The notes under the pieces are model-generated. The model was not told the origin of the DNA. It did no database searches and saw nothing but the letters and a program-made list of their open reading frames with translations. Made by a program: the position numbers and the translations under genes. Positions 11,390-61,197 of a DNA stretch of 64,000 nucleotides are shown here, in pieces; the stretch's first letter is position 1, and every line of letters starts with the position of its first letter. The stretch comes from Dicyema japonicum (taxonomy: Eukaryota > Dicyemida > Rhombozoa > Dicyemidae), in contig RDEW01000056.1 of NCBI GenBank assembly GCA_011109175.1, positions 124,001 through 188,000 of the forward strand. Direction: 5' to 3'.

Positions 11390-12195
11390 TACAACAAAGT
11401 CATCTTATTAGTCAGTGGATACTATAATATAGGAGGTTTTATGAAACCAGGTGGGTTTCGTAGACCTCAAGAGTATTTTATGTTTATGAAAAAATTTGCC
11501 TTTATTGAAAACCATCTTGTATTTTTCTCAGACGACGAACAAAATCCTCAGACGCATGGGTAAGATTAGAAAAAAACCTTCCTACCACTTTAATTAACCT
11601 AAACAGGTCAGAATTGATTGGGTTTAAAAAAATTGAAGAAATAAAGCATATTTTCACACTTCCTGGATTTGGCTTGTATTCTGAAGAAACTGGAAATTAT
11701 AACTACTCTGCGGTCACGAATTCCAAACACGATATTTTGAAAAGAGCAATCGTAATGTTCTCCATAATTTCTCATACGTCGCCTGGGTTGATGTCGGTCT
11801 TTTCCGCAACGTGAAAACTACAAAAATGTATAAACTGAAAAAACAAAATACGTGTACGATACACGTGTCACTATGAGTCAAGTAAAAAAATATGAAGAAT
11901 ATCCTATCGAAAATGTCATAAAAAATGCAAGAGTTTGGGTATCTGGAGCTGTATTTATAGTCCTGTTGACCTAATGTACAAATTATGTGATAATTACGAA
12001 AAGTTTTTTCTTAAATTGTTATCTCTGAAACTGATGGCGACTGACGAACAAGTACTATTCTCAATGTACAAATTCGAAGGAATCGGACTTTTGGATAATA
12101 AAGTAAAACTGAGCCTCTATCAATGCAATTATTATGTCACATGGCCAAGCGATACGTATGGGCTGCCTGTTACATTAACCTTGTACCAAGATTAA
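11390..12195 (+). CDS. HtrL/YibB-family protein (glycosyltransferase-like), short introns
   Basis: Pieces in order match the HtrL_YibB family. NKVILLVSGYYNIGG and EYFMFMKKFAFIENHLVFF form the N-terminal strand and 'L-dd-L--F' block. NSKHDILKRA is followed by SYVAWVDVGLFRN, the family's W-D-G-F core, and later VWVSGAVFI and ATDEQVLFSMYKF give the DEQ motif. Introns fit in frame at 11560-11606 (47 nt) and 11854-11882 (29 nt). Two single-base losses break the frame, near 11768 (CCC to CC) and near 11958 (GG to G). Both lie in short homopolymers, so either sequence error or early decay is possible. The first exon and start codon are not located. Enzymatic role is inferred from the family only. 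Confidence 0.65.
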
Positions 12196-12640
12196 CTTCA
12201 ATTAATTTTATAAATGATTTATTAACCACAAAAAATTAAATTTAAGTAACTTTATTTAGTCTACTCATTAATACAGTCGATATGTCTCCTTTCAAATTTT
12301 TATCTATCAAATTGAATCTGTTCGCATTCGATATAAATTTTTAAAAAATTGAATCTGTTCGCATTCGGAATTATCTAGATATAAATTTTTTAAATCAAAC
12401 TACGTGAATTTTCAATAGATTTTGGAGTCAAACAATTAACCAAATCGTCAATTTGTTCTGGAATCGCACACTCATCACTTAAATTATCTAAGTCATAATG
12501 TTAAGTATAACCATTAATTATTGAATTTATTCCCTTAATTCTCGATATCTTTCGAAAGGACTTTCGTTAGAAAATAAATGGACCGATATGTTATAACTGT
12601 AGACAGCACTTTCTAATTTATCAAGCCACTTTTTTCACTG
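12196..12640. other. 3' flank of the HtrL-like gene, partly duplicated elsewhere
   Basis: No gene is seen. 12133-12305 is repeated at 54975-55165 and 12365-12463 at 58500-58620. In that second location the two halves are separated by a full-length LINE, so a segment running from the last exon into the 3' flank was duplicated before the LINE landed. Confidence 0.55.
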
Positions 12641-13080
12641 TTATCCAGCATTTTGACAACTTTCTCGTGATCGTCTAGGACGCGAAAATTTGCAGACTTC
12701 ACAATTTCGAATGACTTTTCTAATAATCTCATTCTTTACAGTGAAGTATCTTTGTCGACATTCATACTTAATTTTATTGACTCCTCCGTGTGAAAACTCG
12801 TGCAACGATTTCGCACATGCTCCATTTCGGTTTCATTATCCAGGGATATGACTAACTTGGGATCAGTTGATTTAAGATACAGTCTAAAATTATTGCAAAT
12901 TTACAATACCTGTCATTGATAATAGAAAAATTCTCTATCTTCTTTACAAGTCTATATTTTCTGTGCCTCAAAAGATTTTCGGAAATTTATCATGCAAAGC
13001 ATCTTTTAAAGTTTGATATTCAACGCAATCTTTCACAAAACCCTTGTATGAAGCCATTGCAACAAAATAATCTTCCATGC
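12640..13080 (-). pseudogene. Integrase-like (zinc-binding) remnant, KRBA2/Ginger-like
   Basis: The minus strand reads MEDYFVAMASYKGFVKDC near 13078 and, after stops, FSHGGVNKIKYECRQRYFTV...IRNCEVCKFSRP. The H-x3-x..H/C-x2-C pattern (HGG...RYF...I..C.VC) resembles the H2C2 zinc finger that precedes DDE integrase cores in LTR elements and Ginger transposons. No catalytic core was found. The intact LINE was inserted immediately upstream of this frame. Confidence 0.4.
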
Positions 13081-13107
13081 TATAAATCACGGTAGAAATC
13101 TAGGTTT

Positions 13108-16100
13108 TATTTATTATTATTATTTAAAGCACTCCCGAGAAGTCATAAAATTAATCAAGCCTCCCTTGTGCCGTATTTCTAGCCATCCTCTCTATCAGCC
13201 TTTTCCAGGACCCTCTACTTCGTGCCAGTTCCCTTAAGGTATCTAGGTCGTCTGCGGAAGTGAGCTTCAGTCCCACAGCCGACAGGTCTCCATTCAAAAT
13301 AGTTGGGAGTGTGACTCTTGGTCTTCCACGGAAACCGGCTCCCGTATGCATTAAGTAGTTTTCCATGGCGATATTCGCGGGTACTTGAGCATTTAGACGT
13401 AAGATATGTCCAAAGAGACTCCATCTTGATCTGAAGATCTCCTCGGATAGTATACCAGATTTGCACTTCGAGTAGAGGTCATTGTTTGAGATCTTCTTAG
13501 GCCACTTGATCTTGATTACTGATTTCAATTGTGTCCTGTGGAAAGCGTCAAGACGGTCCATCTCTTGTTTAGAGATTCCCCAAGTGCCTGAATTGTAGGT
13601 CAGGACGGGGATGACAAAAGCCTTATATATTCTGAGTTTGGTGTTTAATCCCATCCTCTTCTTATGACCCCACATATTCGATACTTTCTTTAGTGCACAC
13701 ATTGCGAGGATTTTCCTCCGAGAAACATCTTCTGAGTCCCCGAGAAGCGAACCCACCTTCTTTTGCTTTCTCCAAGACTCGTCCGATCTTCGATCATTGC
13801 GTGTAAGTGTTGTGAACTCTGTTTTATCGGTGTTAACGGTTAAGAACCATTTCGAGAATACGTGTGGAAGAACGTTAAGCATGTGTTGAAGTACTTGAAT
13901 ATCCTCAGAAACAAAGTCCAGGTCGTCCGCGTAGATTATCTCGTTATAATTGTTGCCAACCAGGGGTCTGAACTCTCTTAGTGCGGCCTCAAGGTAGACA
14001 ATAAAGAGGACCGGGGATAGTGAGTCCCCCTGTGGAACTCCACGTGAGGTCGAAAAAAAGTTAGAGGTAGAGTCACCAATTTTGACGGCAAGTTGAGTGT
14101 TCCGCATGAGTAAGTGTATTATTTTGACATCGTCAGGCAGTAGAAAACTCTCCAACACTTCCATAAGTTTTCCACGGTCCACCGAGTCGAACGCACGGGA
14201 CATGTCGATACCAAGTATCTCAATAGATTTTTTGTATTTTTGGCACAGGGCACAATACCACCTGTGCCCCCATACCACGTCAGCCGTGGACCTGCCCGTC
14301 CGGAATCCACTTTGGCCGTCCGAAAGAAATATGTTCACCCTCTCCTTTATTCGGTTTAAAGCAATGAGGGATAATGTTTTTCGTATGGAGGTTAGGAGTA
14401 TAATAGGTCTGAAGTTGTGAGGGGGGCCTTTACTTTTTCCCGGTTTTTGTAGTGGAATTAGCCACCCTTTTCCCAGTTCCAGTTCATCTGCACCCTCGAG
14501 AGACCGGTTGAAAATGTTAGTAATCATTTCAATTAGCTCCTCCGGGCCGTATTGTAAAAGTTCTGCAGTAATGAAGTCTGGTCCGGCAGATCTTCCGGTA
14601 TTTAATTTTTTAATAGCTTGTTGAGTTTCGGATATGGTAATAGGGCTAGTTAGAGTGTACTTGTAAGACTTCCGAGATTTCATTGCTTGGTCAGCCGCGT
14701 CCTGTTTGTTGAACATAAGGTCAAAATGGGATGCCAGAACGTTTGCTTTGTTAATGGTCCCGATAACGTCGTGACCAAGGTTGTCATGGACAGTTAACGA
14801 AATTGGACAGTTTTCTCTGCTAAGAAGCCGGATTGCTTTGAACATTCTTGGTCCGTTCTTGTACTTTAATATGTCTGAGATTTTCTCCTCAGCTTCATTT
14901 TTGGCAAGGAATCTTTGTATTTGTTTGATCTTCGTTAAGACTCTCCCTCTCTGGGTGCGCAGTACTTTGATATCTTCCGGAGCGTTTGTGTTTTCCATCC
15001 GGAGTCTGAGCTCTTTCTGTGTTACAGAGAGTTGTCCGATATCCGGATTACATTGTTTGTGACGAGATTTGGTGATGTGACCAAGCACACTAAAGGCTGT
15101 GTTTTGGATAGCAACCACTATTTCATCCCATAAGCTGTTTGTCGGCTGATTTTGGTTAATACTGTTGATGCTATCTCTCAGAACTGCACTATAACGACAT
15201 TTGGTGGATTCTTCGTAGCGTAACCTCTCAGTGTCGAAACGTACTGAGGTAAGGCCTTTGTGTTTCCCGTGTATTCCATGGATTCTTTTAAGTACTAGCC
15301 GGGCGACCACAAGTTTATGATCGCTACTTGTTTCAAGTCCACCGTAAGATCTCGAGTCCTGTAGGAGGGCCTTCTGATGTTGCTTGCAGATAATATAGTC
15401 GATCTGATTGTATATATTGACTGTGTTTCCAGATTTGCCTTTTCTGGTACCAACCCACGTGGTCCTGTGTCTTGCCGGGTGCTTGAAACAAGTGTTGCAT
15501 ATGAGTAGGTTGAATGCCGTGCAAAATTGTATTAATGCCTCTCCGGGGATGTTACGGCGGTTTCTACCGTGGGATCCAATACACGTTTCACCAGGTCTTG
15601 CTTTTCCGGCCCTGGCGTTCCAGTCCCCGGCGATAAAAAGAAAGTAAGAGGATGAAAGTGAGTTGTACACACTTGTGAGAGTAGAGTAAAACGTATCCAG
15701 TTCTTCGATATTCGTTGATACACGTGCTCCGGTTGGGGCATATACGTTTATGATGGAGATCACTGAGTTGAGTTTGTTTCCGCATTTGATTTGTAACACC
15801 GCGACACGGTCAGATACTGCCCATACTCTTGAGACACAGTGAAACAAGTGCCGATGAACAGCAAATCCGAGCCCATAGTGCCTGCAGTCTGGTGTGAGGG
15901 TCAAAAGGTAAAAATTCTTTAACAGTTCTGCAGATTGTTCGGTTATTTTCGTCTCTTGCAAACAACAGACAGAGATGTTGTATTTACTCAGATCACGCGC
16001 CAATTGTTGTTTCTTGTAGCACTGATTGAGGCCTCGGCAGTTGAGGGATCCAAGAGTGAGGGGAGAAACTGGTAAGCAATACGAAGAAGACATAGTGCAA

Positions 16101-16138
16101 GTAGAGGGACGTCACCACCTCAACCAATATTAACCAAT
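13108..16138 (-). mobile_element. Full-length AP-type LINE, copy 1, with 12-bp TSD
   Basis: The element is transcribed right to left. Its 5' end has GGTTGAGGTGGTGACG about 30 bp before the ATG, and its 3' end is a short (AAT)n-like tail at 13108-13135. The flanks 13096-13107 and 16139-16150 are both AAATCTAGGTTT, a 12-bp target-site duplication. It is about 99.8% identical to copy 2 (30541-33543); six differences were found by eye. This implies recent transposition. Confidence 0.9.
13151..16093 (-). CDS. Intact LINE polyprotein: AP endonuclease plus reverse transcriptase, 980 aa
   Basis: One uninterrupted frame encodes both activities needed for target-primed reverse transcription. The N-terminal 270 residues are an endonuclease/exonuclease/phosphatase fold with LGSLNCRGLNQ, CCLQETKI (catalytic E), AGDWNAR (D-x-N) and SDHKLV (D-H). 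The RT follows with QSGFRTGRSTADVVW, LGIDMSRAFDSVD (motif A aspartate), SRGVPQGDSLSPVLF (motif B) and IIYADDLDFV (motif C, YADD). The C-terminus carries RWSLFGHILRL and a GRPR stretch common in animal LINEs. No separate ORF1 is seen upstream. The start ATG sits about 30 bp after the conserved 5' motif. Clade assignment needs a tree. Confidence 0.93.
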   Translation of the reverse strand: MSSSYCLPVSPLTLGSLNCRGLNQCYKKQQLARDLSKYNISVCCLQETKITEQSAELLKNFYLLTLTPDCRHYGLGFAVHRHLFHCVSRVWAVSDRVAVLQIKCGNKLNSVISIINVYAPTGARVSTNIEELDTFYSTLTSVYNSLSSSYFLFIAGDWNARAGKARPGETCIGSHGRNRRNIPGEALIQFCTAFNLLICNTCFKHPARHRTTWVGTRKGKSGNTVNIYNQIDYIICKQHQKALLQDSRSYGGLETSSDHKLVVARLVLKRIHGIHGKHKGLTSVRFDTERLRYEESTKCRYSAVLRDSINSINQNQPTNSLWDEIVVAIQNTAFSVLGHITKSRHKQCNPDIGQLSVTQKELRLRMENTNAPEDIKVLRTQRGRVLTKIKQIQRFLAKNEAEEKISDILKYKNGPRMFKAIRLLSRENCPISLTVHDNLGHDVIGTINKANVLASHFDLMFNKQDAADQAMKSRKSYKYTLTSPITISETQQAIKKLNTGRSAGPDFITAELLQYGPEELIEMITNIFNRSLEGADELELGKGWLIPLQKPGKSKGPPHNFRPIILLTSIRKTLSLIALNRIKERVNIFLSDGQSGFRTGRSTADVVWGHRWYCALCQKYKKSIEILGIDMSRAFDSVDRGKLMEVLESFLLPDDVKIIHLLMRNTQLAVKIGDSTSNFFSTSRGVPQGDSLSPVLFIVYLEAALREFRPLVGNNYNEIIYADDLDFVSEDIQVLQHMLNVLPHVFSKWFLTVNTDKTEFTTLTRNDRRSDESWRKQKKVGSLLGDSEDVSRRKILAMCALKKVSNMWGHKKRMGLNTKLRIYKAFVIPVLTYNSGTWGISKQEMDRLDAFHRTQLKSVIKIKWPKKISNNDLYSKCKSGILSEEIFRSRWSLFGHILRLNAQVPANIAMENYLMHTGAGFRGRPRVTLPTILNGDLSAVGLKLTSADDLDTLRELARSRGSWKRLIERMARNTAQGRLD

Positions 16139-16150
16139 AAATCTAGGTTT

Positions 16151-19963: not shown

Positions 19964-21375
19964 CTATTTATCAGCCTTGGGAAGTACCTTGTTGTACAAC
20001 TTTCTCTGGAGACGATTTTTTGAGTAGTACTCCTCTCTTTGCTGGTCCTCCTTCTTCTTTATCACTTCGGGCAGTCTTTTATAGATCTTTTCGTTTTGAG
20101 CACGGATCTCAGTCATTGACATCTTCTTCCGTTTCCCGGGATTCAAGGGACAGGTCACTAAGTATTATAAAGGTAGGGTACCGTTCGGATATTTATCACT
20201 GCTCTTTCTGTGGTTCACCTGATTTGAGTCACTTTGGCGGAGCTTTATTGTCTCCTCAACATTTTCTGCCTCCCACGTGAGTTTTTGACGAAGTAGGACT
20301 GTGAACCTCGAAAGCTTCTTGTAGGGACATATGAGGACTCGATTCATCCTACAGAGGAATGTCCCAGGCTAAGGGACTTCTTTGAACGTTGGATTCGATC
20401 GTAAGCTGGGACGAGTAGTGGGAGTGAGAGTGAGTGGAAAATGAGTCAGACTCAGTTATTTGGGATAACAAGTGATTCTCGAACTCTTTGAATATCGAAA
20501 TCACCCCCAGCCCCTTTTTTACGAGATCTGGTCTCCTCTTGTTGGCAGAAACCCAAAGTTTCCACAGTCTGCTAGTTATTGGAGGCATTTTGGTTTCGGT
20601 CTCCGACATTTCCTCGTCCATCGGCATTTGTCCACAGTCGGATGGTTCCGAATCCACGTCTGAACAGACCGATTCCTTTTCCGTGACTTCCCCGTTAACC
20701 TTGGCATCCTTGAAGTACACCACGGTCCCTAACTTGCGGAATTATGGCCAAACCTGTTGTGTTGGTTGTCTCGTCGGTTCTGAAACACGTTAAACCAAGG
20801 ATACCTGTTAGTTAAGCGAGATTCCTGGGATTCGTTCCGTCTAGGGATCTGGAGCAGTTCCTCACAAGTGTTTATGAATGATTCCGCTCGCACGTGGGTC
20901 ATCCTCTTGCATATAGTTGGAGTCTATATTTAGAAACTTGGCGAACCACGGGTAGCTCAAAATTGAGGAAGTCTTCCTGAAGCATTAGTCTGGCCTGTTG
21001 AAGGGCGCCGTTGAAAAGATCAGTCGGTTCTTGGGAGGTTTCCGTGATTTCGAGCAAAACGTCGTCGATATTGACGGTCTTTGCGTCAAAGATGTGTTTG
21101 AGTTCGTCCTCAGAACTGATGTCGTTGTTTATGTAGTTATTTCTCGCCAAAGGATCAAACAAGCTGCTAATTTCATCCAATGTGCTCAATTCCGTCGTGG
21201 AATTCTCTGACATTGCGTCGTTCTTAGAGCAGTTTGACCAAATGGAAGTTGAGTCTGATGTGGGCCCCGCTATGTCCTCTTCAGTAAAGCAAATCAAATC
21301 CCTTGTTTCCATCATCGAGGTTGCGGAAGGAGGGGACGTGTCTGCATTGGCCAGTCTAGATCTATCTCCCGGCCT
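19964..21375 (-). CDS. ALMS-motif centrosomal protein (ALMS1/CEP295-like), six exons
   Basis: The C-terminal exons carry the ALMS motif: SLQEAFEVHSP..FVKNSRGRQK, then EKIYKRLPEVIKKKE and NRLQRKLYNKVL before the stop at 19964-19966. This motif targets ALMS1 and CEP295 to centrioles in other animals. Upstream exons are acidic and serine-rich with no domain recognised. In-frame introns are 20906-20937 (32 nt), 20780-20804 (25), 20729-20753 (25) and 20158-20181 (24); a TAG at about 20350 disappears if 20338-20352 (15 nt) is spliced. Two single-base losses inside the motif (about 20296 and 20246) break the frame, both at short runs. The 5' end abuts a LINE fragment at about 21375, so the N-terminus may be missing; the first ATG in frame is at 21315. 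Confidence 0.72.
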
Positions 21376-21540
21376 TCTTCCTAATGGTGTTCCTCAAGGA
21401 TCCACTTTGTCTCCATTACTATTCAATCTATTCATGGCGGATCTCCCCACAACGGACGTCGGAAATGATATTCTGATTTTTTGCCGACGATATTAACATT
21501 GCGTCACGTGATCAGGACATCCAGATTGTTACCTAGAGAT
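21375..21540 (+). pseudogene. LINE RT fragment, motifs B and C
   Basis: The frame reads LPNGVPQGSTLSPLLFNLFM and, after one extra T, ADDINIASRD. These are RT motifs B and C of a Jockey-like LINE. Nothing of the rest is attached. It directly abuts the 5' end of the ALMS-motif gene on the other strand. Confidence 0.6.
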
Positions 21541-23690: not shown

Positions 23691-24104
23691 AAAGGTTAGT
23701 TCATTTTGAAGTCTCAAACTCTTTTAGACATTTATGCAATTAAGGCGCGTAAACACCTCAGACAATTTTTTATCTTAAATATTAATTTAAAAAATTTCTA
23801 TTTAAAAAAACTTTAGTTAAATTTATTATTTTATAAATAATTTAGTGAGAAATCGATTCGTTTCCTAAAGAAACTTGGACGCCTAGCTACACTAAAAAAG
23901 CCAAGACGCACGTGAGACTCGGTGGCTTCTCCAGTTGATTTCTGTTGCGATCGGAGAGGCAACTCAACGTCGATTATGTAGACAGGGACCGCTTTTGATT
24001 GATTTTTGTATTTTTTGTTAATGATTTATTGCCTTTAATTTAAAATTGAATAAAACAAAATTAAAAAAAACAATGAATTCAACCAATTTGCCAGAGACAG
24101 GATT

Positions 24105-24670
24105 TCTTAGAATCGATTTCCATTTCGCTGAGGACAGTTTACTCCGTCCTTGACATATCTCCTCCCAGACTGGTCAGAGAGATCATCTCGGTGGACGGAG
24201 CAAAGGATCTTGGTATTTACTCATATTTATGCAAAGAACAACTGATTAGCCTTTCTTTGGAGATTTATATTGAACGAACCTTCAATCCATGTGAAGCTTA
24301 TTCGTATACCAAAAAAGGGCGGCTGGACTGATTCGAGTGAGATTGAAGGGGCCAAGGACGCTACGGGGGATGTCCTCATTTTTCTTGACTCACATTGTGA
24401 GGCAACATCTGGTAGAAGACACTCTAACATTTGAGGGGAGAGAACTTGGAAATATCCTTCAGAGTATAAAATAACTAAATATGTTACTTGGATGTGCGGG
24501 GGATCTCTCCAAATCCACTCCTGCTTGTTAGTGGGGCATATCTTCTGCACCAAGAATCCATATCAGTAGGGAATAAAAATGGACGTCTTTACTCTAAATT
24601 AACTACGACTAGCCCACGTGTGGATTGATGAGTACAAGAATTACTACATAAATTCTTCTGGTCCTTATTA
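24105..24670 (+). pseudogene. Polypeptide GalNAc-transferase pseudogene with internal deletion
   Basis: Readable GALNT blocks are LRTVYSVLDISPPRLVREII, then VKLIRIPKKGG and ATGDVLIFLDSHCE. The D-S-H is the Mn-binding DXH motif of these Golgi enzymes, which start mucin-type O-glycosylation. The first blocks join in frame if 24214-24250 (37 nt) is an intron. Next comes WMCGGSLQIHSC..VGHIF and LRLAHVWIDEYKNYY, normally more than 80 residues further on. The stretch that should lie between (with the GGxxW and acceptor-binding region) is missing, and stops interrupt the end. No lectin domain follows; LINE sequence begins at about 24640. It is a dead gene piece. Confidence 0.7.
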
Positions 24671-24890
24671 ACTTAGCGTCGCACCTCATAGTGAGAGCAA
24701 ACTTTGTAGTGGATCCTGATCTTTTCCAACAAGATAATTTTTCCGTAGAGGAAAAAACCACCCCCACATACATATAATAGTGATGGGAGAATGACTCGTT
24801 GGAAGACAAAGAAAAAAGTATCCAACCAAGCATTCGTAGACACAACATTGCTTGAAAGCCTTCTACCTCCTTGCTGCAATCTCTACCTTT
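24640..24890 (-). pseudogene. Fragment of LINE family B C-terminus
   Basis: The minus strand reads FQRVILPSLLYVCGGGFF, equivalent to VILPSLLYGCEGW in the family B copy at 6990-8560. It is a short remnant overlapping the end of the GalNAc-transferase pseudogene. Confidence 0.5.
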
Positions 24891-25245: not shown

Positions 25246-25253
25246 ACCTAAGG

Positions 25254-27132: not shown

Positions 27133-27140
27133 ACCTAAGA

Positions 27141-27832: not shown

Positions 27833-28960
27833 TCACTTGGGCTCAAATGTCCTCCCCCTAAAATGAACAACCAATGCTTACGAGGCTGTCTTCTTCTCCA
27901 CAGGTTTTTCATATTTGCACCGATTTATCCTCTTCATCAACCCCACACTCTGGTCCCTCAACCTCGATATGAAGAACATCTAAGAATCACCCACATCCCC
28001 CACATTGTAGTTGGAGACCGAATAGTAGATTTGCATAGGCATAATTGTAAGTATCTTAGCCACCATCTCCCTCTTCGAGAAAAGCCTCCCATCGACCACT
28101 TTTAACATATTTTAGGGGACCAACTCATGGATAAGTAAATTGTGTTGCTGTTGGGTGACACATTGAACGCCTTCTTAAGCTCCTTTGGGGGATCTCTTTC
28201 ATTGTATGTCACCAAGGGGGCCATATTGTTGTACTTCTGGAGGTTCTTCAATTCCTTAAACTACCAAACACGTGACAACCTGAGCAAACTGTTTCAAAAA
28301 CAGGAAGTAGATTGAATCCTCACTGTAGATGGAGAAGAACATCCAGAAAACCTGATTCTCGACCATGAGGTACCTATTCAGTCACAACAACTTGAGTACA
28401 GCTTGTCCGACCTTCCAAGGGGGAGAGTCAGTTTCTCAGGTGTCTTAGAGTTAGCAGCAGCGTCGACGAAGTGGTTAACAAGAGCAGAGATGCACTGAAT
28501 TTGAGAAACTGGGCCTTCTTGATCTCCTCAGAAATCTCCTCACTGAGTGGGGGAGTCAAGTCGTACTTGAGGACCGCAGTTGAATTTGATTCAAAGGAGA
28601 TGGACTCCTTGTAATATTGTTTTAATGACTAATAATTAATTTAATTATCACATTTTGAATAATATCAGTTAAATTATTCATAAGGGGAAACAAAATTTTA
28701 AGCTGAAATAAAATAATGAGACACCTGGATAACGTAGCGACTGTCTCCCAAGTTGCTAAATTTGTAGACAATGTCGAAAAAATCTAACTTAATTACACTT
28801 TGAAGGGCTTACCGTGTGCTTCTCCCTTGATGGGGTCTGGCTTGTTGCTATTGGTTAAACAGTGGTATTACCCTTTCTGTACAGCATTGAGCCTCGATTC
28901 CAGTATCTCGCTGATCACTTTAGTGCCAATGCTTAATATTGCCTGATTGGTCGAGTCCAT
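27833..28960 (-). CDS. ARPC2: Arp2/3 complex subunit 2 (p34-Arc), nine exons
   Basis: This is the actin-nucleating Arp2/3 complex subunit that with ARPC4 forms the structural core and contacts the mother filament. The spliced frame starts MDSTNQAILSIGTKV and contains GNKPDPI, FFDIVYKFSN, SLKQYYKE, YDLTPPL, LVNHFVDAA, YLMVENQVFW, YNERDPPKELK and the C-terminal FFISRLR...SGRTFEPK. All align in order with animal ARPC2 (GNKPE, LKFYKEL, LLYDLENLP, HREPPLELK, THTRMR, GKTF). In-frame introns are 28848-28871 (24 nt), 28784-28812 (29), 28629-28724 (96), 28374-28399 (26), 28255-28279 (25), 28099-28124 (26), 27980-28003 (24) and 27858-27881 (24). One base is missing near 28495 (codon before CISALV). A loop of about 20 residues in the middle is shorter than usual. 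Confidence 0.85.
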
Positions 28961-37779: not shown

Positions 37780-39634
37780 ATGGACAAAGCACAAATTCGA
37801 GTCATTTCTGGTCTCATTAACCAGGGAATCGAGACTAAAGACATGATTAACACCCTAATCAAAATATTTGGGACCGACTCTCCCAATAATGTAAGGACCA
37901 TAAGTGACTCTCAGTTCGAAGAGATGATCAACCATGTAAGGCTGAGTCAACGTCAAGATGTTAACAATATGACCAGGAAAACTGCCACCTGTCCTCCTAA
38001 GGATTTTACCGGAATATCAGAGTCTACCAACGATCCACCAGACACCTCCCATTATAGCCGGGCTTCAACCGGCAACAAAAATAGGTTTAACTAAGCTCTT
38101 TTGTTCAACGTCGATTTAAATTTCTAATCAATTAGTGAGATCCTGAATATCTGCGTGATCGACAAGGTCAGGGATGGTTGGGTTTATTTGACATCTCTAG
38201 TCAACATCTATTTCAAATGTGAGGAACACGTGATCACCAGCCAGATGAAATATTTTGCCTGCAATCTCCCCAAAGACAGGAAGAACAGAAAAGTCGACAT
38301 TTCAGTACATTGTGACGTGGATGTCTTCGAATTTTTGCTTAACTATGCCCAACGTGCGAATTCCGGCAACCAAAATTGCCACGAAGACATAAGTTTATGA
38401 GATATAACATTCAGACTACCAAAATGTCGTCTCCCTGTTGATTTCCGCCGACTTTTTGGGGATGGAGACACTGGTAGTCGTTAAATGGATTTATTAGGTC
38501 GACCACTGCGTTGAAGTATTTTGGCGGGAAATTCGATCCATTATTCCATTTAAAATCAATCTGAATTGTATTAACGATGGGTTAGTACGGAGGATCTCTG
38601 ACAGATTCACAGCCCTTGAGATCGACTCACTTTCTGACGAGGCTGAGAAGATCAAACAGTCGCTGTTGTTGTGAGTATAGACGTCTGTTCTTCTGGAAAA
38701 TCGTTAGTCTCTTCGATTCCTCGAGTGGGGACTCTTATGCGTCGACCTTATTCAAGTCATCTTTTGATTGAGCCCAGATGTATCCACTGTGGGAAGTTAC
38801 TGACCTTAAAGACCGCCAAACTGTTCATTTGTGGACCAAAAAGGTGACCTTATACCTAACCCACCAGATATATAATTTCAAGGAGTGGGGAGATCGAGCA
38901 CTGTCATCAACCTGATGCCAACTGGGATGTCAACGAGTTTGTAGTCAACAGCAAACAGACACTGGAGGACTGGAGACTCGTGTACTGGTGGATCTGGAGT
39001 ATTATAAACTACTTTAAATGTGCGAACTGTCAGAAATACTTCCCTTGCTACAAAAAAGTCGCCGAGGAAGGGAATTTTGTGCCCCCCACGAGGACTGACT
39101 TTGATTCCCTGACCAACTCTGTGAGTAATTATTGGTCACTTCTCAGGGATGTGCACATCTTGACCATACTCTAGAATTTAGTGGCGGGATTTTTAAGGGA
39201 GAAGATCTCATTGGCAAGGAATTGTTAGAGGGACTTAAGATCAGTGACGGCTACCATTGCTCGGTGGGGAGTGATGAGTTAGCAGTGCAGTTATTTTAAG
39301 ATGTTTGGACCCCTCTGTTATTTTCCCCCTACAAAGTTTACCTTGCGAGAAACAATCCCCAAAAAAGCTGGTTATTGTTTTTCTAACAAATCAGAGTAGT
39401 GGGAGAAGGCAATCCTCTCATAATGGACGGAAGATGAGCATTGAAGAGAAGTGGGACTGCCAAAAGTCAGTGAGACAAAACCAGGACATGCAAAGACGAC
39501 AAGGTTACAACAAATGGAAATACTTAGAATACCTAAGAATGACAACCACGTCCAGTTTGGGGGAAAGGAAGACGTTTAGGAGTATTTACCACAGATTGGA
39601 AAGTGAATACTGTAAGAGTAATTGTGGACGATAA
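37780..39634 (+). CDS. SANBR/KIAA1841-like BTB-domain protein, nine exons
   Basis: The spliced frame (about 536 residues) matches the SANBR (KIAA1841) family along most of its length. KVDISVHCDVDVFEFLLNYA is the BTB-like core. NVVSLLISADFLGMETL, CINDGLVRRISDRF, CIHCGKLLT, NWDVNEF, WWIWSIINYFKCANC and a C-terminal KWDCQKSVRQNQDMQRR...IYHRLESE follow in the family order. In-frame introns are 38085-38135 (51 nt), 38393-38414 (22), 38474-38497 (24), 38671-38707 (37), 38756-38777 (22), 38844-38882 (39), 39121-39146 (26) and 39278-39300 (23), with an optional 24-nt one at 39371-39394. No frameshift is needed. Mammalian SANBR restrains class-switch recombination, so a general ancestral role must differ and is unknown. 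The N-terminal SANT-like part is not evident. Confidence 0.85.
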
Positions 39635-44205: not shown

Positions 44206-45893
44206 ATGACTTTAATGCAGGTGTTGTCCTCCATTGCTAACCGGATTCGAGTAAATTCAATACTTTCAACTTCTGCTGCCAATTCTGGGTACATTTAGTA
44301 TTTCATCATAGTCACCCAACTTCATGCTGTTCTATTGCTGAGATTATGAGTGTCCTATTCTTCAAAGAAATGAGTTATTTCCCTGACTCCCCTAAGGATC
44401 CCTCAAATGACAGATTTATTCTATCAAAGGGGCACGCTGCTCCAATTTTACGCAGTTTGGACAGAACTAAGCCTCTATAACGAGGAGGACCTCCTAAATC
44501 TCCGTAAGATAGACTCTCCCTTGGAAAGACATCCAACCCCAGTACTATTACTTCCCATCGATTATTTTACTGATATTTCTATAATTTCAGAAACTCCCGT
44601 TCGTTGATGTAGCCACTGGTTCCCTTGGACAGGGCCTCAGTTCGGCTGTGGGAATGGCCTATGTCGGGAAATATATCGACAAAGCCTCGTATGTGTTGTT
44701 AAAAATCAAGATATCGAGTGTAATGCATCGTCGGTGACGGGGAATCGGCTGAGGGATCTGTTTGGGAGGCCATGGCTTTGGCTAGTTACTACAAATTGGA
44801 CAATCTTGTGGTCATTATCGACTGCAACTTTTATGGTCAGTCCCAAGAGACTATGCTTGGTCATGATGTGCAGACATATGCTGCCAGATGCTCTGCCTTT
44901 GGGTTTAACTCGATTGTGGTGGATGGACATGCCATCCCTGACATCGTTTTTGCCTTTGAGAGTGCTAGGAGAAAGAAAGACATGCCGACCGCTTTGGTTG
45001 CAAAGACTATGAAGGGGAAGGGCTTCCCTGGTGTGGAAAACCTTAATGGATGGCATGGAAAGGTCCTCGGTGATAAATCTGCTGCCGTTCTGGAGCTTCT
45101 GAGATCTGACTCTTCACGGACATCGGTGGTTGAATTGGTTCCCAAGCCGTTGGACGCTGTGCCTACAGTTGATTCCTCGAGGAAAACTTGTCTTTCATCA
45201 CCCCCAGACTACAGTATTGGAAAAATGGTGGGAGTGTGGCTTATGGTAGGTGGCAACAAGGACAGCATATGGGGACGCTCTTTTAAAGCTCGGGAAAGCA
45301 TCCCCCTGGGTGATGGCCATGGACGGAGACACTAAAAACTCAACCTTTGCATCCAAATTTGCGGTTTATTAGTGTTATCTATAAAAGGAGGCATTCAGTG
45401 GAGATAATCGTTTTATTGAATGCTTCATAGCAGAACAGAACATGGCTGGGGTAGCTATTGGGGCAGCCACTAGGGAAAGAGCTGTTGTGTTTGCCAGCAC
45501 ATTTGCCGCCTTTTGGACTAGGGCTTTCGATTAGATAAGGATGGGAGCTATTTCGATGACGAATGCTAATTTTGTGGGTTCTCATGCTGGAGTGTCTATT
45601 GGGGAGGATGGTCCTTCACAGATGGCCTTAGAAGACATTGCAATGTTCCGTTCTATTCCCGGGTCTACTGTCTTCTATCCAAGTGATGCTGTCTCTACTG
45701 AACGAGCTGTCGAGTTGGCTGCCAATACTCAGGGTATTTGCTTTATAAGGACCTCTCGACCTAATTTCCCAGTTATTTACGGCAATGATGAGTCATTTGC
45801 AGTAGGACATCCCAAAGTATGGCTGATAATTATGGTTAGGTTGTCAGAAGTAGTCCTAATGTTGTCTGTACTGTGATTGCTGCGGGTGTGACC
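44206..45893 (+). pseudogene. TKT: Animal-type transketolase, disrupted
   Basis: Transketolase moves two-carbon units in the pentose phosphate pathway using thiamine diphosphate. Seen in order are [59 protein letters not shown] (ThDP-binding GDG), [21 protein letters not shown] and [16 protein letters not shown] (catalytic Glu) with ICFIRTSRP. In-frame introns are 44289-44311 (23 nt), 44542-44590 (49), 45364-45387 (24) and 45817-45839 (23); 45250-45265 (16 nt) may be another. Defects are a frameshift at about 44446-44451, an unclear junction at 44693-44723 with TAA in the RVYC block, a TAG at 45532-45534 for the conserved Q of AFDQIRM, and truncation by a LINE after AAGVT. The C-terminal domain is absent. 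Confidence 0.85.
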
Positions 45894-47345
45894 TTAAAGA
45901 GGGAGTTAGTTGGCCTCATGCTGCAAATCTTGCCATATCTTGGACTTTTCTCTGCACTCTCAGACCCCTCTTATCTTTTATTCTGTGCAGCAACATGCGA
46001 GTTAATGATGGCATCTCTTTTTAGGAATTTTTCGTTCCTTATACTGATGCATCTCTTATTGACATTATTAGCAAATTTTCATCTTGATCTAGCTTCTCGT
46101 CGAGCCTTTAGTGTAGGGCAATCTTGATCCCTGCTCTCCTCGGTTTTCAAGAAGCAAGATAAAAAGCTCTTTGTATGCAGTGTAATACCATCTTGAATGA
46201 TCATAATGGAATGATCGTACGCGAAAAATAAATAAAAACACATCCGTTTCGTGTCTCAATTTCCTCATACACTACATCACATCGTGGGCTATCTTCCTTT
46301 GAGTTTAAAATCGCACAATGACTTCCCAGATTTCTCAAAATCTGTTCCAAGATATCTCAGGAAGCTAACAATGCTAATTCCGCATACGAAGTCTTTCTGA
46401 TTTCCTTTACAAATCCGATTGAAGAACCTCATAGCACTAAATTTTTCTTCTGACAGTTTAATCCATGAAGACAGCACGAGTCTTTTATCTCTTCCATGTA
46501 CACATTGAGTCTCTTCTCTGAGATCATGCTCGATCTTGACACAATAGACAGTAGCACGTCGTCTGCATATATCAGAGTTCTCGTACTTGGTGTAGTCTGA
46601 GATAGGTAATCGGCCATTAGAACGTTAAATAATACAGGGCTCAAAATTGATCCTTGTGAGACTCTTCTCTTCAAAAATATCATATTAAAAATAGCGTCCG
46701 CATCTAACATAGGATTTTATTTTTACTTTCACCCAATTCACTAGTTCCTATGGGCTTCCGTCCGAGATAACTGACCGATTATGGCTCTGTGGTTAACACT
46801 GTCAAATTCTTTTGATAAGCCGAACATATGACATTCACGAAACATTTGGATTCTCTGGCGTTGCATAACTGGAGTTGAGATGAAATAACCAATCACCGCA
46901 TGACCGTCCTAGGCGAAAACCAAATTGATTATTTCAGAAGTAGTCTTTTTTTCAGCTGATTTGTAAGCATCCAGAAGATAGTTTTTTCTATAATTTTCGA
47001 AATTGACCGAATCAGGTTGATAGGGCCATAATTGAAGGATCATTCTTCGATTTTTTTGTCTTCGCTACCATCCATACAATTGTCTTCTTCCATTCGTGTG
47101 GAGTATAACCAATTTTTATGCATGCGTTGAATATATCTTTGAGAACAGATTAAAATGTCGGGCCTTCTTTGAACATCCTATCTTTGATGAAATCACTGCC
47201 CGGAGGTTTTTTCTTGACAGCTCTTATTTCTATCTTCAGCTTTTTTAGAGAGATCTCTATAAATGCTGTTAGTCTCCAAGATTCTTTAGGAGGATATTGG
47301 GATCTTAGACGGTCCGTTAGAATAAGTTGTTTTAATGGCTTTCAA
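45894..47345 (-). mobile_element. 5'-truncated LINE family C inserted in transketolase
   Basis: The minus strand repeats 9480-10955 in inverse orientation: RVSQGSILSPVLFNVLMADY (motif B), LIYADDVLLSIVS (motif C), SFLRYLGTDF. Its 3' end CTCCCTCTTTAA abuts the transketolase codons, and its 5' end stops at 47345 in mid-RT, as in normal 5'-truncated LINE insertion. No target duplication was found because the downstream transketolase exon does not resume. Confidence 0.78.
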
Positions 47346-52650: not shown

Positions 52651-52689
52651 ATTTTATTTCAAAATAAATAACATAATTTAAAAATTATA

Positions 52690-55165: not shown

Positions 55166-55303
55166 CTATTTAAAACTACCTCCACGCGATTATTCGATAA
55201 AACATTAATTATTTCTGCTACTGGATAATACTGAGACTCAAACTTATACAGTCGCAATGAGGGATTTGTTCCAAAGTCTTTTTTAGCCCAAACCTATTTA
55301 TTT

Positions 55304-58300
55304 ATTATTATAAGCAACTACATAGAATCATATAAACTATAATTCTATTCGTTCCGCGTCTGAACAATCCTCTTAATTAGCTTTTCCCATCCCCTCCTGT
55401 CCGATGCCAAGTGCCGCAGACTACCAAGGTCTTCACCGTCCTTTAGTAGTCTGGTTACTGATCTCAGGTCACCATTAAGGACTTCCAGAAGAATTATTCT
55501 TGGACGACCTCTGAACTTCTCCCCTGACGTATCGAAGTATTCTTCTATGACGACGTTTGCTGGCGTGTCTTGTTCTAATCTGAGAATATGGCCAAACAAT
55601 CTCCAGCGAGCCTTCATGATCATGGTGCTCAGAGGTCCGGAACCGCATCTTCTATATAAATTTTCACTCCCTACACGCATTGGCCACTTTAGTCCCAAGA
55701 GAGATCGAAGTTTCCTTCTGTGAAAGGAGTCAAGGTTTTGTTCGTCCGTTTTCGAAATTCCCCACGTCCCAGAGTTGTATGTTAGTATGGGCTTCACGAA
55801 CGCCTTATACAACCTGATTTGGAGTGATGGCCCGACCGAGCATTTTCTTATCCAACATTTCATAAGTTTTTGCATAGTAACCGTAGATAACAATTTTCTT
55901 CTTGCAATGTCTTCGGAGTCTCCGAGAAGAGAGCCAAGCTTTACGGTCTTCCTCCAACATTCACTATTGCGTAGTTCAATCCACTTAATTTCAACAATAT
56001 CCGTTTTCTGAACATTCAGTGATAGACATCATTTGGCCAAACAGCCTGATGCAACCTCCAAGAGACGTAAGAGTGCTTCTTTGTCAGTCGAGATAAAGTC
56101 AACATCATCGGCATACACGATCTCCATAATATCATTGTTGTAATACTTCCGGAGGTCTTGCAGAGCCGATTCAAGGTATATAGCAAACAATACTGGGGAA
56201 AGGGAATCTCCTTGGGGTGTGCCCACTGTTGAAATAATTTCCCGTGACAAACATTTTCCAATACGCACTCGTAACCTCGTGTTTGATAAGAGTATCCGTA
56301 TCAGAATAACCGAGTCCTTATCCAGGAAACTTTCAAGCACTTCAATGAGTTTTCCCCGACGGACAGTGTCGAAAGCTCTGGTCAGATCAATTCCAAGGAT
56401 AGTCTTTGAGCTCCGGAATCTTTGTTGAATAGCACATTGCCATCTATGGCACCATACTACATCAGCCGTTGATCTCCCTGTCCTAAAACCACTCTGGCTC
56501 TGGGCCAAGTACCCGTCCACCGGCTCTTGGATCCGATTAAGAGTAATTAGGGCAAGGATCTTCCTTAAGGTGTTTAGAAGGATGACAGGGCGCAGGTTTT
56601 CAACTGGCCCAGGGGGTTTATTACCTTTTTGAACTGGTACTAGTATCCCCTTTCCAATTTCTGAAAAGTCCTTGTTTTCTATCATGTCATTCAGCAATTT
56701 TGAGAGTTTATCTGCAAGTTCTGGAGGGCCAAATTTTAGCAATTCAGATGGTATATTATCTGGTCCTGGAGAGCGCCCAGATTTAAGTTTCCTTATCGCC
56801 ATGCAAACCTCCTCCGGTGAAATGATCCGTTCAAGTGTTGTGTTCTTAGGCGTGAAATCTGATTTTTCTCCTTTTACAAAGAACAGTTGTTCAATATGCG
56901 ATGCTATGAACTCTGTCTGTTCTGCAACATTTCCTATTGTTTTTCCATTTCTGTCATGCAAAATAAGTTTCACTGATTGGCTCTTCCTCCGTATTAGTCG
57001 TATAGCCATGAATGTCGCAGCATTGTCTTTAAGGTTTTCTACCTCTCTGATCTTGCTTTCCAACTGACTAGTGTGATGTAGTCTGTTTAGGAGTTTGATT
57101 TTTCTCTCAATTTGCCTTCGTTCTTGTTTCAGTTTGCAAACAGTCTGAGGATCGACAGTATTTTCGGATCTAAGCCTTAAGTTCTTCTGCAAATTCAATA
57201 GGGCTGACACTTCCGGGTGACGCTGACTGCTATGGGGTTTAAGTTCCCCCAAATGTTTGTCAGCAGCGGAAATGATCCCTCTCATAGTTTCGAGCCATGC
57301 CTTTCCTGGTGAAAGATCCGATGCCGTATTATTAATTGAATCCGATACACATTCTTTATAGTCTGCTTGTACTTTTGGTGAAGAGCCCAAGAGTTCAGTC
57401 ATATACCTTCTTGATCGCGTGGAATCTCCACCACGATGTGTTTGGAAGAAGCATCTTCTATTAGTTATCCCGTAGAGGAACTCCTCCGCAGTTGGACCAA
57501 GTCTTAAGCTGAATCTTGCTGACACAATTTTGTGATCACTGTTAACAGTTAGTCCTCCATAAGATCTCGAGTCCCGTAAGAGAGATTTGTCTTTTACTCG
57601 ACACAGAATATAATCGATCTGATTATAAATCCTTATCAGATTTCCGGTGGTCGATAGTCTAGTGCCCATCCACGTTGTCTTGTGGCGTGCGGAATGTTGG
57701 AATTGAGTATTGCACAGGAATAAATCAAAGGATTCGCAGAAATATGCCAGAGCAGTACCAGAATAGTTCCTGATCCCCCTTCCATCTGGTCCAATAAAAC
57801 GTTCGTGTCCTTGATGTACCCCAGCTTTAGCATTCCAATCACCAGCGATAAAGAGGAACGTTGAAAACTTCAGAGAAGATACGACCCCGACAAGTTCTTT
57901 GTAGAAAACGTCCAATTCCTCTGGGTTTTTGGAAACACGGCCACTATGTGGGGCGTACACGTTCACAATGGAAATTAGTTGCCTGGACTTCCTTTTGGGT
58001 CCAATATGAAATTGAATAACATATATCCTGTCATCAATTTTCCAATATCGATGTAATCTGGGGAGCAAATTCTTGTGAACAGCGAAACCCTGTCCATAGT
58101 TTTTATTGTACGATGGAAGGAGGATTAGTCTGTATTCTCCAAGGTTTTCATCGAGTCCTTTTCTGAGCTTCGTCTCTTGGAGACAGCAAACAGAGCATCC
58201 ATATTTTGCAAGGTCCAGACATAGTTGGTGCCTCTTTGATCAGTCATTAAAACCCCTGGCATTGAAGGTAAGGGTAGAAAACCAGAAAGGATTATTCAAA

Positions 58301-58366: not shown

Positions 58367-58379
58367 AAACCTATTTATT

Positions 58380-59190: not shown

Positions 59191-59254
59191 CACATCAAAA
59201 ATTAATCTTTTATTGTCTAGAAACAAAAATAAAATTGCGGAAAACAAATTAATT

Positions 59255-59880
59255 ATTAAAAGCACTCCCGAGAAAACTTAAATTAGTTAAATTTTCCTTG
59301 TGCCGTATTCCTAGTCATCCTTCCGTCAACCTCGACCATGATCCACTGTTGCGCGCTTGTTCTTCTAGGTAGTCTAGATCGTCAGCCGAAGTTAGTCCCA
59401 TACCATCTGCCGATGGGTCTTCGTTCAAGATAGTCGGGAGTGTTGTTTTGGTCTTCCGCGAAATCTGAATCCTGTGTGTGCGAAGTAGTTGACCAGTGCG
59501 AAATTTGATGGGATCTAATCATTTGGAAGTGAAAATATCATCTGACAGCACGCCATATTTGCATTTATTATAAAAGTTTGCATCAGAGATCTTCATAGAC
59601 CAGTTAATCTTGATTTTTGAGCTGAGCTATGTGGAAAGAGTCAAGACGGTCCATTTCCCGTTTAGAGATTTCCCAAATCCCAGAGTTGTAGGTCAGTACC
59701 GGGATGACAAAAGCTTTGTATATTCTAAACCTGGTATTTAGTTCTATCCTCTTCTTGTGTCTATGTCGCATACCAGTTGGTGCTTCTTTTGATGTCGTTT
59801 AAGTCCTCTGCAATTGAAAGTTCACAGAATAAACGGAGTAGTCGGTAAAGAATACGAATGACAAACAATTCTACAACGAC
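59255..59880 (-). mobile_element. Diverged 3' part of the full-length LINE family
   Basis: The left end AAAAGCACTCCCGAGAA equals the 3' end of copies 1 and 2, and the minus strand continues with the codons for the C-terminal GRPR and RLDSFH..-type blocks in broken frames up to about 59770. The 5' end is truncated, followed by a scrap of the endonuclease start. Confidence 0.6.
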
Positions 59881-60460
59881 GCAAATTTTATGGGTTTTTT
59901 GTAAATAAATTTATTTTATTTAAATTTAATTTAATTATTAGGGAGCTTGAATGACCAGCTATTTCCTCTGACAATGGCTATCGAGATTCGCTCTCGAAAC
60001 TGTCCAGCCTCATGGAGAGTCTAGGTGACCCTTTGGATCATTGAGTCGATCCAACGGACTAGATCGTTCTCTTTTGGACTATGGATTCCTGACGTCCTAA
60101 AAGCAAATAGGACAAACAAATGATCCTTCAAAATACTTCAGTACTTCATTCACTGATCCTCGGCTTGCTTAGAAGCATTACCTGGTTCTGGGAAGGAAAG
60201 ACCAGTCCTTGTAGTCGTTGGAACCCCTCCAATGCACTGGACAGAACAAATAATCCTATTTGTGTAATTTTAACACTGGACATCGCCTGAGACACGTAGA
60301 TAAGGAAAAAAAAGAAAACCTTCCACCAAATAGCCAATAGGAGAATTGTACCCATAGCCATTCACCTGATCCATAAATTGATATGGGAGAGGATAAATTA
60401 CCGAAGCATAACAAATCAATAAGCCTTTGTTAAATTATACAAAAGAATAATGTGATAAAC
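59881..60460. other. Spacer, no supported gene
   Basis: No family resemblance or clear repeat was found in this stretch, apart from a short resemblance of 60240-60310 to the repeat at 26850-26890. Confidence 0.3.
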
Positions 60461-61197
60461 TCACTCCACCATTATAGAGGTTAATATATTGATTGTTATG
60501 GAGGATACAAGGATGGTAACCAACGTTAAGACAAAATTACTGTTTTGAACACGTGTGACCGCAATATATCCAAAAACGTGCATATCATCGCTTAATCTGT
60601 TCTTTACAATGCAAATATAGACTCCACTCGATTTACTCTCCAGTGATGTTTTGTTTTGGACAAAATCGTTTGTAAAGTCACTGACAAATTTGCCGTCCAA
60701 CTTCCAAAAGACTTCAACTTGGTCTCCTTTGAACTTGCACCAATATTGAACAATCTCTCCACGTGAGGTTTTTTTAAAATCAACAACTTTGGCTTTTCTT
60801 AAAATCAAAAAACAAGAGACCGACGGAGTAAACATGTGCGGTAAGAAAAGGTCTCTCAGCGAAAGATCAGACGTGCCAATGCAGTAAAAGTCTTGTTCTT
60901 CTCCTTAAAGTTCCGTATTTTTAAAATCGACGTATCTCCTGAGACTTGGACGGAAAAATCGTCCGACTGGTTAATGGAGAATGAAACATTTCCACAAAGT
61001 GAACAGAGGCCTTCCTGTCGTCCCCGTAGTAGTCCTTCCACACCAACTGAGAATTACTTCAAAACCGACTTTCTTAGCATTGGACTGGAACAAACCAATT
61101 TTACGGATTTGTTTTTAAGGACATAGTGAATCTTGGGGAAAATGTTCAGTTGTACCCCGTTTTCAGTAATCGAGTTGGCTTTTACATGGAGAGTCAT
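60461..61197 (-). CDS. Two-Ig-domain type I membrane protein
   Basis: Read on the minus strand, domain 1 has SVKLVCSS (first Cys), LVWKDYY (core Trp) and LKIRNF..EEQDFYCIG (D-x-Y-C end). Domain 2 has QYWCKFKGDQVEVFWKLDG and SGVYICIVKN, followed by a membrane helix FVLTLVTILVSSITINIL and a very short tail. This is the layout of animal Ig-superfamily receptors or adhesion proteins; ligand unknown. Introns fit at 61047-61065 (19 nt) and 60967-60995 (29 nt), and one base is missing in a G run near 60901. A signal peptide is not visible; an upstream exon joined by a 23-nt intron starting GTATGACACG is likely, so 61197 may not be the true start. Confidence 0.6.

What the first reader, a model, noticed from the sequence alone, without database searches (positions are those of the whole stretch)
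11560..61065. Ultra-short spliceosomal introns dominate every host gene
About 30 GT-AG intervals restore a conserved reading frame when removed, most of them 22-29 nt: ARPC2 (24, 29, 26, 25, 26, 24, 24), SANBR-like (22, 24, 22, 26, 23), ALMS-motif (32, 25, 25, 24), TKT (23, 24, 23), Ig protein (29). The alignment to known protein families across the junctions is direct. Intron populations this small are reported in animals mainly from dicyemid mesozoans; assigning the organism to that group is inference.
Basis: partly seen in the sequence, partly recalled or inferred. Interest (0 to 1): 0.8.

Follow-up and report, generated by a model that had tools for sequence, protein, structure and literature searches.

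The report
Animal genes with 23-letter introns
The genes of this animal, most likely a dicyemid (a tiny parasite of octopus and squid kidneys), are cut by introns of about 23 letters; this is already known for the group, but here the introns show a weak branch-point signal that an earlier study of the group did not find.

Summary
By aligning proteins across the junctions I placed 71 introns in 11 genes of this genome: 67 are 30 nt or shorter, 66 are 26 nt or shorter, and the short ones average 23.5 nt. Fifteen of the 71 lie in the window (ARPC2 and TKT). One ALMS and the Ig intron were not. The TKT copy is decayed.

The genome (64.7 Mb, Pax genes, LINEs) fits a dicyemid, for which introns of about 25 nt have been in print since 2007. 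The species was not placed: the SSU search did not complete. The spliceosome looks ordinary: U1, U2, U12, U2AF65, SF1 and PUF60 are all encoded. Two points go beyond the passages I read: a T.A motif 7-9 nt from the 3' end (56 seen, 24.5 expected), where a 2008 study of 41 dicyemid introns found no branch signal; and short introns of length 3n nearly always carry an in-frame stop (16 of 18; 10.2 expected), as recalled for Paramecium. Samples are small, and no RNA was examined.

The parts
27844..28939 (-). ARPC2 (Arp2/3 complex 34 kDa subunit) gene, aligned part, 9 introns of 22-29 nt; one 2-base codon at 28499
   Evidence: spliced alignment; product of the model: Pfam P34-Arc 2.8e-12, PDB ARPC2 4.8e-13
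28848..28871 (-). ARPC2 intron 1, 24 nt
28784..28812 (-). ARPC2 intron 2, 29 nt
28703..28724 (-).
   Evidence: also chosen by the HMM; not
28629..28651 (-).
   Evidence: also chosen by the HMM; part of a 63-nt interval
28374..28399 (-). ARPC2 intron 5, 26 nt
28255..28279 (-). ARPC2 intron 6, 25 nt (the HMM prefers other boundaries here)
28099..28124 (-). ARPC2 intron 7, 26 nt
27980..28003 (-). ARPC2 intron 8, 24 nt
27858..27881 (-). ARPC2 intron 9, 24 nt
37780..39634 (+). SANBR-like gene with BTB domain (3' end uncertain)
   Evidence: HMM; BTB_SANBR E 3e-16 and 1.3e-18
38393..38414 (+). SANBR-like intron, 22 nt (HMM)
   Evidence: matches reader
38474..38497 (+). SANBR-like intron, 24 nt (HMM; two other settings give a 21-nt intron in its place)
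   Evidence: differ
38659..38680 (+). SANBR-like intron, 22 nt (HMM)
   Evidence: matches reader
39121..39146 (+). SANBR-like intron, 26 nt (HMM)
   Evidence: matches reader
39278..39300 (+). SANBR-like intron, 23 nt (HMM)
   Evidence: matches reader
19964..21435 (-). ALMS-motif gene
   Evidence: HMM; ALMS_motif E 3.5e-11
20780..20804 (-). ALMS-motif gene intron, 25 nt (HMM)
   Evidence: matches reader
20729..20753 (-). ALMS-motif gene intron, 25 nt (HMM)
   Evidence: matches reader
20158..20181 (-). ALMS-motif gene intron, 24 nt (HMM)
   Evidence: matches reader
44215..45924 (+). Transketolase (TKT) copy, decayed: two in-frame stops, a frameshift, aligned only to human residue 521; introns kept
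44289..44311 (+). TKT intron, 23 nt
44542..44590 (+). TKT intron, 49 nt
44689..44710 (+). TKT intron, 22 nt
45228..45249 (+). TKT intron, 22 nt
45364..45387 (+). TKT intron, 24 nt (the aligner chose a 27-nt alternative at 45372-45398; I replaced it because the 24-nt choice reads the exon better)
   Evidence: the HMM also takes 45364-45387
45817..45839 (+). TKT intron, 23 nt

Best explanation
These are genuine major-class (U2-type) spliceosomal introns shrunk to about 23 nt in an animal, most likely a dicyemid. Shown from sequence: removing them gives conserved proteins; their lengths cluster tightly at 21-26 nt; U1 with its ACTTACCTG 5' end, U2 with its GTAGTA branch-recognition element, U2AF65, SF1 and PUF60 are all encoded. 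Inferred: U1 picks out an almost bare GT, usually after a G; U2 pairs weakly with a T.A motif whose A lies 7-9 nt before the intron end, about 15 nt from the GT; the T-rich body marks the intron against similar GT-AG pairs in exons; and translation-coupled decay removes transcripts that keep an intron, which would explain why introns whose length is a multiple of three nearly always carry a stop. None of these steps was observed in RNA.
For: Lengths: 71 introns anchored to proteins in 11 genes; 66 are 26 nt or less. U2AF2 (7 introns), SF1 (7, partial query), CCT1 (6), CCT4 (2), PRCP (6), the C-terminal part of CCT2 (7) and the RRM part of PUF60 (2) read through with no frameshift and no stop. 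Exon spacings in the chaperonin family search also imply gaps of about 22-26 nt at many, not all, junctions (my arithmetic from the table, no script). The aligner allowed only GT-AG; that GT-AG is the right rule rests (best of 24 pairs in two genes). Machinery: U2AF65 (adjacent exon matches, none over the whole-protein cut-off; spliced alignment to human residues 30-474), U2 (25 matches listed, 22 over the cut-off; element read in one), SF1, U1 (11 matches, none over the cut-off, best 69.0 against 69.5 bits; 5' end read in one), PUF60. Branch-like signal: T.A with A at -9 to -7 seen 56 times against 24.5 in shuffles over 67 short introns; in a later set of 12 alone 9 against 5.0, P 0.039; in 40 HMM-only introns 23 against 15.0, P 0.022 (this set shares PRCP, CCT2 and PUF60 with the 12). 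Discrimination: a motif score trained with the tested gene left out separates 53 true introns from 317 same-length decoys with AUC 0.933; T content alone gives 0.88. Stops: 16 of 18 short introns of length 3n have an in-frame stop against 10.2 in shuffles, P 0.0025; 24 of 49 others do.
Against: No transcript was examined. In the 40 HMM-only introns, A at -7 itself is not enriched (14 of 40, P 0.30). The 3n-stop pattern is not significant in the later 12 alone (4 of 5, 2.9 expected, P 0.29), and 3n lengths are only mildly rarer than one third (13 of 55, P 0.08). Some genes need a 1-2 base frameshift in an exon (ARPC2, CCT5, the N-terminal part of CCT2, and CCT7 in an ambiguous stretch), which I read as assembly indels but could not check. 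Published dicyemid values differ somewhat: mean 38.2 nt in Dicyema japonicum, and about a third of predicted introns of Dicyema sp. are 30 nt or more, against 4 of 71 above 30 nt here. The dicyemid identity rests on agreement of general features only.
Confidence: 0.82

Rival explanations
1. The intervals are not introns: they are artefacts of patching frames in decayed genes or in an assembly with small insertions and deletions.
For: TKT in the window is decayed, and frameshifts occur in exons of ARPC2, CCT5, CCT2 and the TKT paralogue, so the assembly or the genes do carry indels. A permissive gene finder invents 932 introns in the reversed sequence.
Against: U2AF2, SF1, CCT1, CCT4 and PRCP need no frame repair at all, yet have 28 such intervals between them, 26 of them 21-25 nt long. 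GT-AG beats 23 other dinucleotide pairs in both genes tested. Indels would not cluster at 21-26 nt.
Confidence: 0.03
2. The introns are real but the organism is not a dicyemid: another reduced animal such as an orthonectid, or an unknown lineage.
For: No SSU rRNA or multi-gene placement was possible (the RF01960 search did not complete). Introns here (mean of the short ones 23.5 nt) are somewhat shorter than those published for dicyemids (means 26.2, 24.9 and 38.2 nt, a median of 27 nt).
Against: Paired-domain matches in four places speak for an animal. The orthonectid Intoshia has a median intron of 57 nt. Genome size 64.7 Mb against 65-67.5 Mb for Dicyema japonicum, whose genome also holds LINEs. 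The near-absent 5' consensus is close to the dicyemid value.
Confidence: 0.12
3. The splice sites are found mainly by a molecular ruler: any GT followed by AG 21-26 nt on is spliced, whatever lies between.
For: Very narrow length spread (SD 1.4 nt among short introns) and weak site consensus.
Against: Nine gene spans hold 317 decoy GT-AG pairs of 21-26 nt against 53 true ones. In the spliced coding sequence of five genes such pairs are not depleted (143 seen, 144.0 with shuffled synonymous codons), so length plus GT-AG cannot be enough. T content and motifs separate them.
Confidence: 0.1
4. Recognition of the 3' end no longer uses U2AF65 but a U2AF-independent route like SPF45/RBM17 in human short introns.
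For: The few nucleotides left between the branch-like A and AG cannot hold a normal polypyrimidine tract. In human cells short introns with truncated tracts depend on SPF45, not U2AF (PMC8363638, abstract read).
Against: A U2AF65 gene with its RRMs and C-terminal domain is present, and so are SF1 and PUF60. A few longer introns exist that could be their only clients, so presence does not decide. RBM17 was not searched for.
Confidence: 0.3

Closest known systems
Ultra-short introns of dicyemids (Aruga 2007 PMC2222250; Irimia and Roy 2008 PMC2483917; Zverkov 2019 PMC6543705; Lu 2019 PMC6736024, passages of each read; Ogino 2010, seen only as cited)
   Same: Introns of about 25 nt in an animal, several per gene, almost no 5' splice-site consensus, some longer introns, genome of about 65 Mb with LINEs.
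   Different: Here the short introns average 23.5 nt (SD 1.4) against 26.2 (n 16), 24.9 (n 41), a median of 27 and, over all introns of Dicyema japonicum, a mean of 38.2. Only 4 of 71 exceed 30 nt. A T.A signal at -9 to -7 is seen, where the 2008 paper reports no branch signature. Stops in 3n introns were tested.
Ultra-short introns of Paramecium and other ciliates
   Same: Size around 25 nt (quoted in PMC2222250; also the start of the abstract of PMC5014332 in a search listing). The in-frame-stop bias of 3n introns in Paramecium is recalled; I did not read it.
   Different: An animal with Pax genes; genes read with the standard code; 3n lengths are not clearly depleted here (18 of 67).
Nucleomorph introns of Bigelowiella natans
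   Same: Very short introns (18-21 nt, as quoted in PMC2222250) with a weak consensus (PMC2483917).
   Different: A vestigial algal nucleus; here a 64.7 Mb animal genome.
Human short introns spliced with SPF45/RBM17
   Same: Too little room for a full polypyrimidine tract.
   Different: The human model intron is 56 nt (abstract) and such introns are a subset; here about 23 nt is the rule. Whether SPF45 is involved was not tested.

Membership tests
U2-type spliceosomal introns | GT-AG ends, removal restores the reading frame of conserved proteins | tested here: met
   GT-AG best of 24 dinucleotide pairs in ARPC2 and TKT; 71 introns in 11 genes found with GT-AG imposed by the aligner, one placed by hand as GC-AG
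U2-type spliceosomal introns | U1 and U2 snRNAs with intact pairing regions | tested here: met
   U2: 22 of 25 listed over cut-off, GTAGTA in the one read; U1: 0 of 11 over cut-off, best 69.0 of 69.5 bits, ACTTACCTG at its 5' end
U2-type spliceosomal introns | branch point adenosine upstream of the 3' end | tested here: inconclusive
   statistical T.A signal at -9 to -7; A at -7 not enriched in the HMM-only set; no lariat data
U2-type spliceosomal introns | removed from mRNA | not testable with these tools
   no RNA-seq held
Dicyemid genome (Dicyemida) | placement by SSU rRNA or phylogenomics | not tested
   17 tries of the RF01960 search of the own genome did not complete; no dicyemid reference compared
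Dicyemid genome (Dicyemida) | introns around 25 nt in most genes | tested here: met
   67 of 71 anchored introns are 30 nt or less, in 11 genes
Dicyemid genome (Dicyemida) | animal (bilaterian) gene set such as Pax | tested here: met
   PF00292 matches over the cut-off in four places on four contigs; of the 14 control genomes one rings, below the cut-off
Dicyemid genome (Dicyemida) | genome of about 65 Mb with LINE-rich repeats | tested here: inconclusive
   64,672,829 bases fits 65-67.5 Mb; LINE-type frames seen in the window only, genome-wide repeats not measured
NMD-surveilled tiny introns (Paramecium type) | 3n introns without in-frame stop are rare (recalled) | tested here: inconclusive
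   16 of 18 have a stop against 10.2 expected, P 0.0025, but not significant in the later 12 alone
SPF45-dependent short introns | splicing needs SPF45, not U2AF | not testable with these tools
   U2AF65 is present; RBM17 not searched

The most novel reading that the evidence does not exclude
An animal has kept the classical intron-recognition kit (U1, U2, U12, U2AF65, SF1, PUF60) and fits it onto introns of 23 nt with a nearly fixed internal geometry: GT, about 15 T-rich nucleotides, a branch A 7-9 nt before the end, AG. The missing site information is made up by T-rich composition and by decay of unspliced messages (stops in introns of length 3n). If so, the published view that dicyemid introns have no branch signal is wrong, and this animal would lie near the lower size limit for a full metazoan spliceosome.
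Probability: 0.4. Interest if true: 0.6.

Novelty: new member of a known kind. Interest (0 to 1): 0.42.

Why it matters
Introns this small leave little room between the two splice sites and almost none for a polypyrimidine tract. If an animal with otherwise ordinary splicing parts removes them routinely, it sets a lower bound on what the metazoan spliceosome needs. The measurable claims (branch A 7-9 nt from the end, T-richness as the main label, stops in 3n introns) turn a curiosity known since 2007 into testable statements. For annotators, gene finders that forbid introns under about 30 nt would break most of the genes looked at here.

Tried and rejected
Rejected: a pure length ruler (decoys of the right length are common and not depleted in coding sequence). 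Loss of U2AF65 or SF1 as the cause (both present). TKT in the window as a working gene. Gene-finder runs with permissive settings or flat length priors, which invent introns in reversed sequence. A gene finder trained only on the anchored genes, which finds just the TKT copy and a LINE frame in the window. A third-codon-position story for the one-base gaps in the TKT paralogue: striking at first, but other essential genes also show exon frameshifts, one in a run of C, so assembly indels are simpler.

Rows dropped or changed before counting: the TKT paralogue's introns (left out); a 56-nt interval in an ambiguous part of CCT7; one misplaced CCT2 interval replaced by a GC-AG intron, and one TKT interval replaced by its 24-nt alternative, both by my judgement. 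HMM-only introns are not in the 71. No hits: Rfam on the window, tRNAs, LINE against phages, sugar transporter against PDB at E 1e-60.
Full report
The window is 64 kb of contig C144 of a 64.67 Mb assembly in 191 contigs. It holds LINE-type retroelements (an open APE-RT frame of 986 codons at 16111-13151; two interrupted copies recognised by eye from their translations) and a few cellular genes. The question was whether many GT-AG intervals of 22-29 nt are introns.

Check in the window. I wrote a spliced protein-to-DNA aligner (local, BLOSUM62, GT-AG introns of any phase from 15 nt, frameshifts and stops penalised) and used recalled human ARPC2 and TKT as queries. ARPC2 on the minus strand needs nine introns of 22-29 nt (seven, one of 63 nt, with a dearer intron cost). 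The product of the model is confirmed by Pfam (P34-Arc) and PDB sequences. It needs one 2-base codon. TKT needs introns of 23, 49, 22, 22, 24 and 23 nt, but this copy has two in-frame stops and a frameshift and aligns only to human residue 521. A second copy on contig C13, 98% identical over one exon, keeps the C-terminal part and the residues lost to stops, though it too needs seven frameshifts. So the window TKT is a decayed duplicate that kept its introns. Each of 23 other dinucleotide pairs gave a lower score than GT-AG in both genes. SANBR and the ALMS-motif gene were only modelled by HMMs; their spliced products hit the expected domains. The Ig intron was not settled.

Check elsewhere in the same genome. 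U2AF65 and SF1 each read through seven introns with no stop and no frameshift; lengths 23, 22, 22, 23, 68, 22, 23 and 25, 40, 23, 23, 23, 24, 25. Five chaperonin genes (CCT1, 2, 4, 5, 7), a lysosomal carboxypeptidase (PRCP) and part of PUF60 give the same picture; of these CCT5, the N-terminal part of CCT2 and an ambiguous stretch of CCT7 need one frameshift each. I looked through the printed alignments and saw no insertion of seven or more residues that would betray an intron kept as coding. In all, 71 introns in 11 genes: 21 nt (2), 22 (15), 23 (20), 24 (16), 25 (10), 26 (3), 29 (1), and 40, 49, 68 and 77 (one each). GT-AG was imposed by the aligner; one CCT2 intron was placed by hand as GC-AG. 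A strict gene finder called 58 introns in 124 kb and none in the reversed sequence; its loosest setting 133 against 25. Looser ones gave 675 against 932 and 108 against 63.

Sites. In the first 58 anchored introns G at -1 holds 60%, A or T at +3 83%, T or C at -3 78%. The information at +3 to +6 is 0.94 bits against equal base use, or about 0.4 bits against genomic composition (sum). The published value for dicyemid 5' boundaries is 0.5 bits, the weakest known in that study (PMC2483917, passages read). Against intron base composition, A stands out at -7 (28 of 55, P 6e-5, not corrected for the 11 positions looked at) and the pattern T.A at -7 to -9. On a later set of 12 anchored introns the pattern is 9 against 5.0 expected (P 0.039), and combined 56 against 24.5. 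In 40 HMM-only introns, chosen without any motif, it is 23 against 15.0 (P 0.022), but A at -7 alone is not enriched there (14 of 40, P 0.30); this set shares three genes with the 12. [quoted passage not shown]

What marks an intron. Inside nine gene spans there are 370 GT-AG pairs of 21-26 nt, 53 of them real. A motif score trained on the other genes separates them (AUC 0.933), and 47 of 53 true introns outscore every overlapping decoy. T content alone gives AUC 0.88. Coding sequence of five genes (6,045 nt) holds 143 such pairs against 144.0 in synonymous shuffles, so they are not avoided. A length ruler alone therefore cannot be the mechanism.

Quality control of splicing. Among 67 short introns, 18 have a length divisible by three, and 16 of these carry an in-frame stop, against 10.2 in shuffles (P 0.0025); of the other 49, 24 do. 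This fits a cell that removes messages with retained introns, as recalled for Paramecium. It is driven by the first 55 introns (12 of 13); the later 12 alone show 4 of 5 (not significant).

Machinery. U2: 25 matches listed, 22 over Rfam's cut-off, branch-recognition element GTAGTA intact in the one read. U1: 11 matches, none over the cut-off, the best half a bit under it, 5' end ACTTACCTG. U12: one match at 85.4 bits, over its cut-off, so at least this part of the minor spliceosome persists. U2AF65, SF1 and PUF60 are present. RBM17/SPF45, which a set of human short introns needs (PMC8363638, outline and abstract read), was not searched.

Who it is. Paired-domain matches over the cut-off lie in four places on four contigs. 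Size, GC of the window (33-45% in 2-kb steps, against 36.7% reported), LINEs and intron size agree with dicyemids (PMC6736024, PMC6543705 and PMC2222250, passages read), although published intron means and medians are higher (26.2, 24.9, 38.2; median 27). Orthonectid introns have a median of 57 nt. The SSU search did not complete, so this remains inference, at about 0.85.

Novelty. Tiny introns in dicyemids are established. A search of the open library for papers holding both 'dicyem' and 'nonsense-mediated' found none; for 'dicyem' and 'branch point' two, one being the 2008 study, the other seen in the listing only. Subscription papers, among them Ogino 2010, were not seen. The new details are the somewhat shorter size, the branch-like signal and the 3n-stop pattern, each on a small sample.

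Noticed in passing
L012 (contig C13, TKT paralogue, minus strand): The fuller TKT copy lacks single bases at seven places in exons with no in-frame stop in the alignment; read by eye, in all seven the gap can be placed at a third codon position. Probably assembly indels, since CCT5, CCT2 and ARPC2 also show single exon frameshifts, but unexplained without reads.
   Followed up: partly
L028 (CCT2 gene, contig C137): One 24-nt intron appears to have GC-AG ends (placed by hand from the reading frame).
   Followed up: partly
   Followed up: partly
window 24073-25530 +: Possible glycosyltransferase gene (polypeptide GalNAc-transferase-like motif from recall); Pfam Glycos_transf_2 only 17.2 bits, below cut-off.
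   Followed up: no
window 13151-16111 -, 30569-33528 -, 55345-58239 -: Three LINE-type copies; the first is open over 986 codons and has endonuclease and reverse transcriptase domains by Pfam, the second repeats its protein in two frames, the third is similar by eye and interrupted.
   Followed up: no
contig C68:163471-163599 of G000: A single U12 snRNA match (85.4 bits) suggests that at least this piece of the minor spliceosome is kept in a genome of tiny introns.
   Followed up: no
G000, U2 family: 22 U2-like loci over the Rfam cut-off among 25 listed, six of the 25 on contig C115.
   Followed up: no
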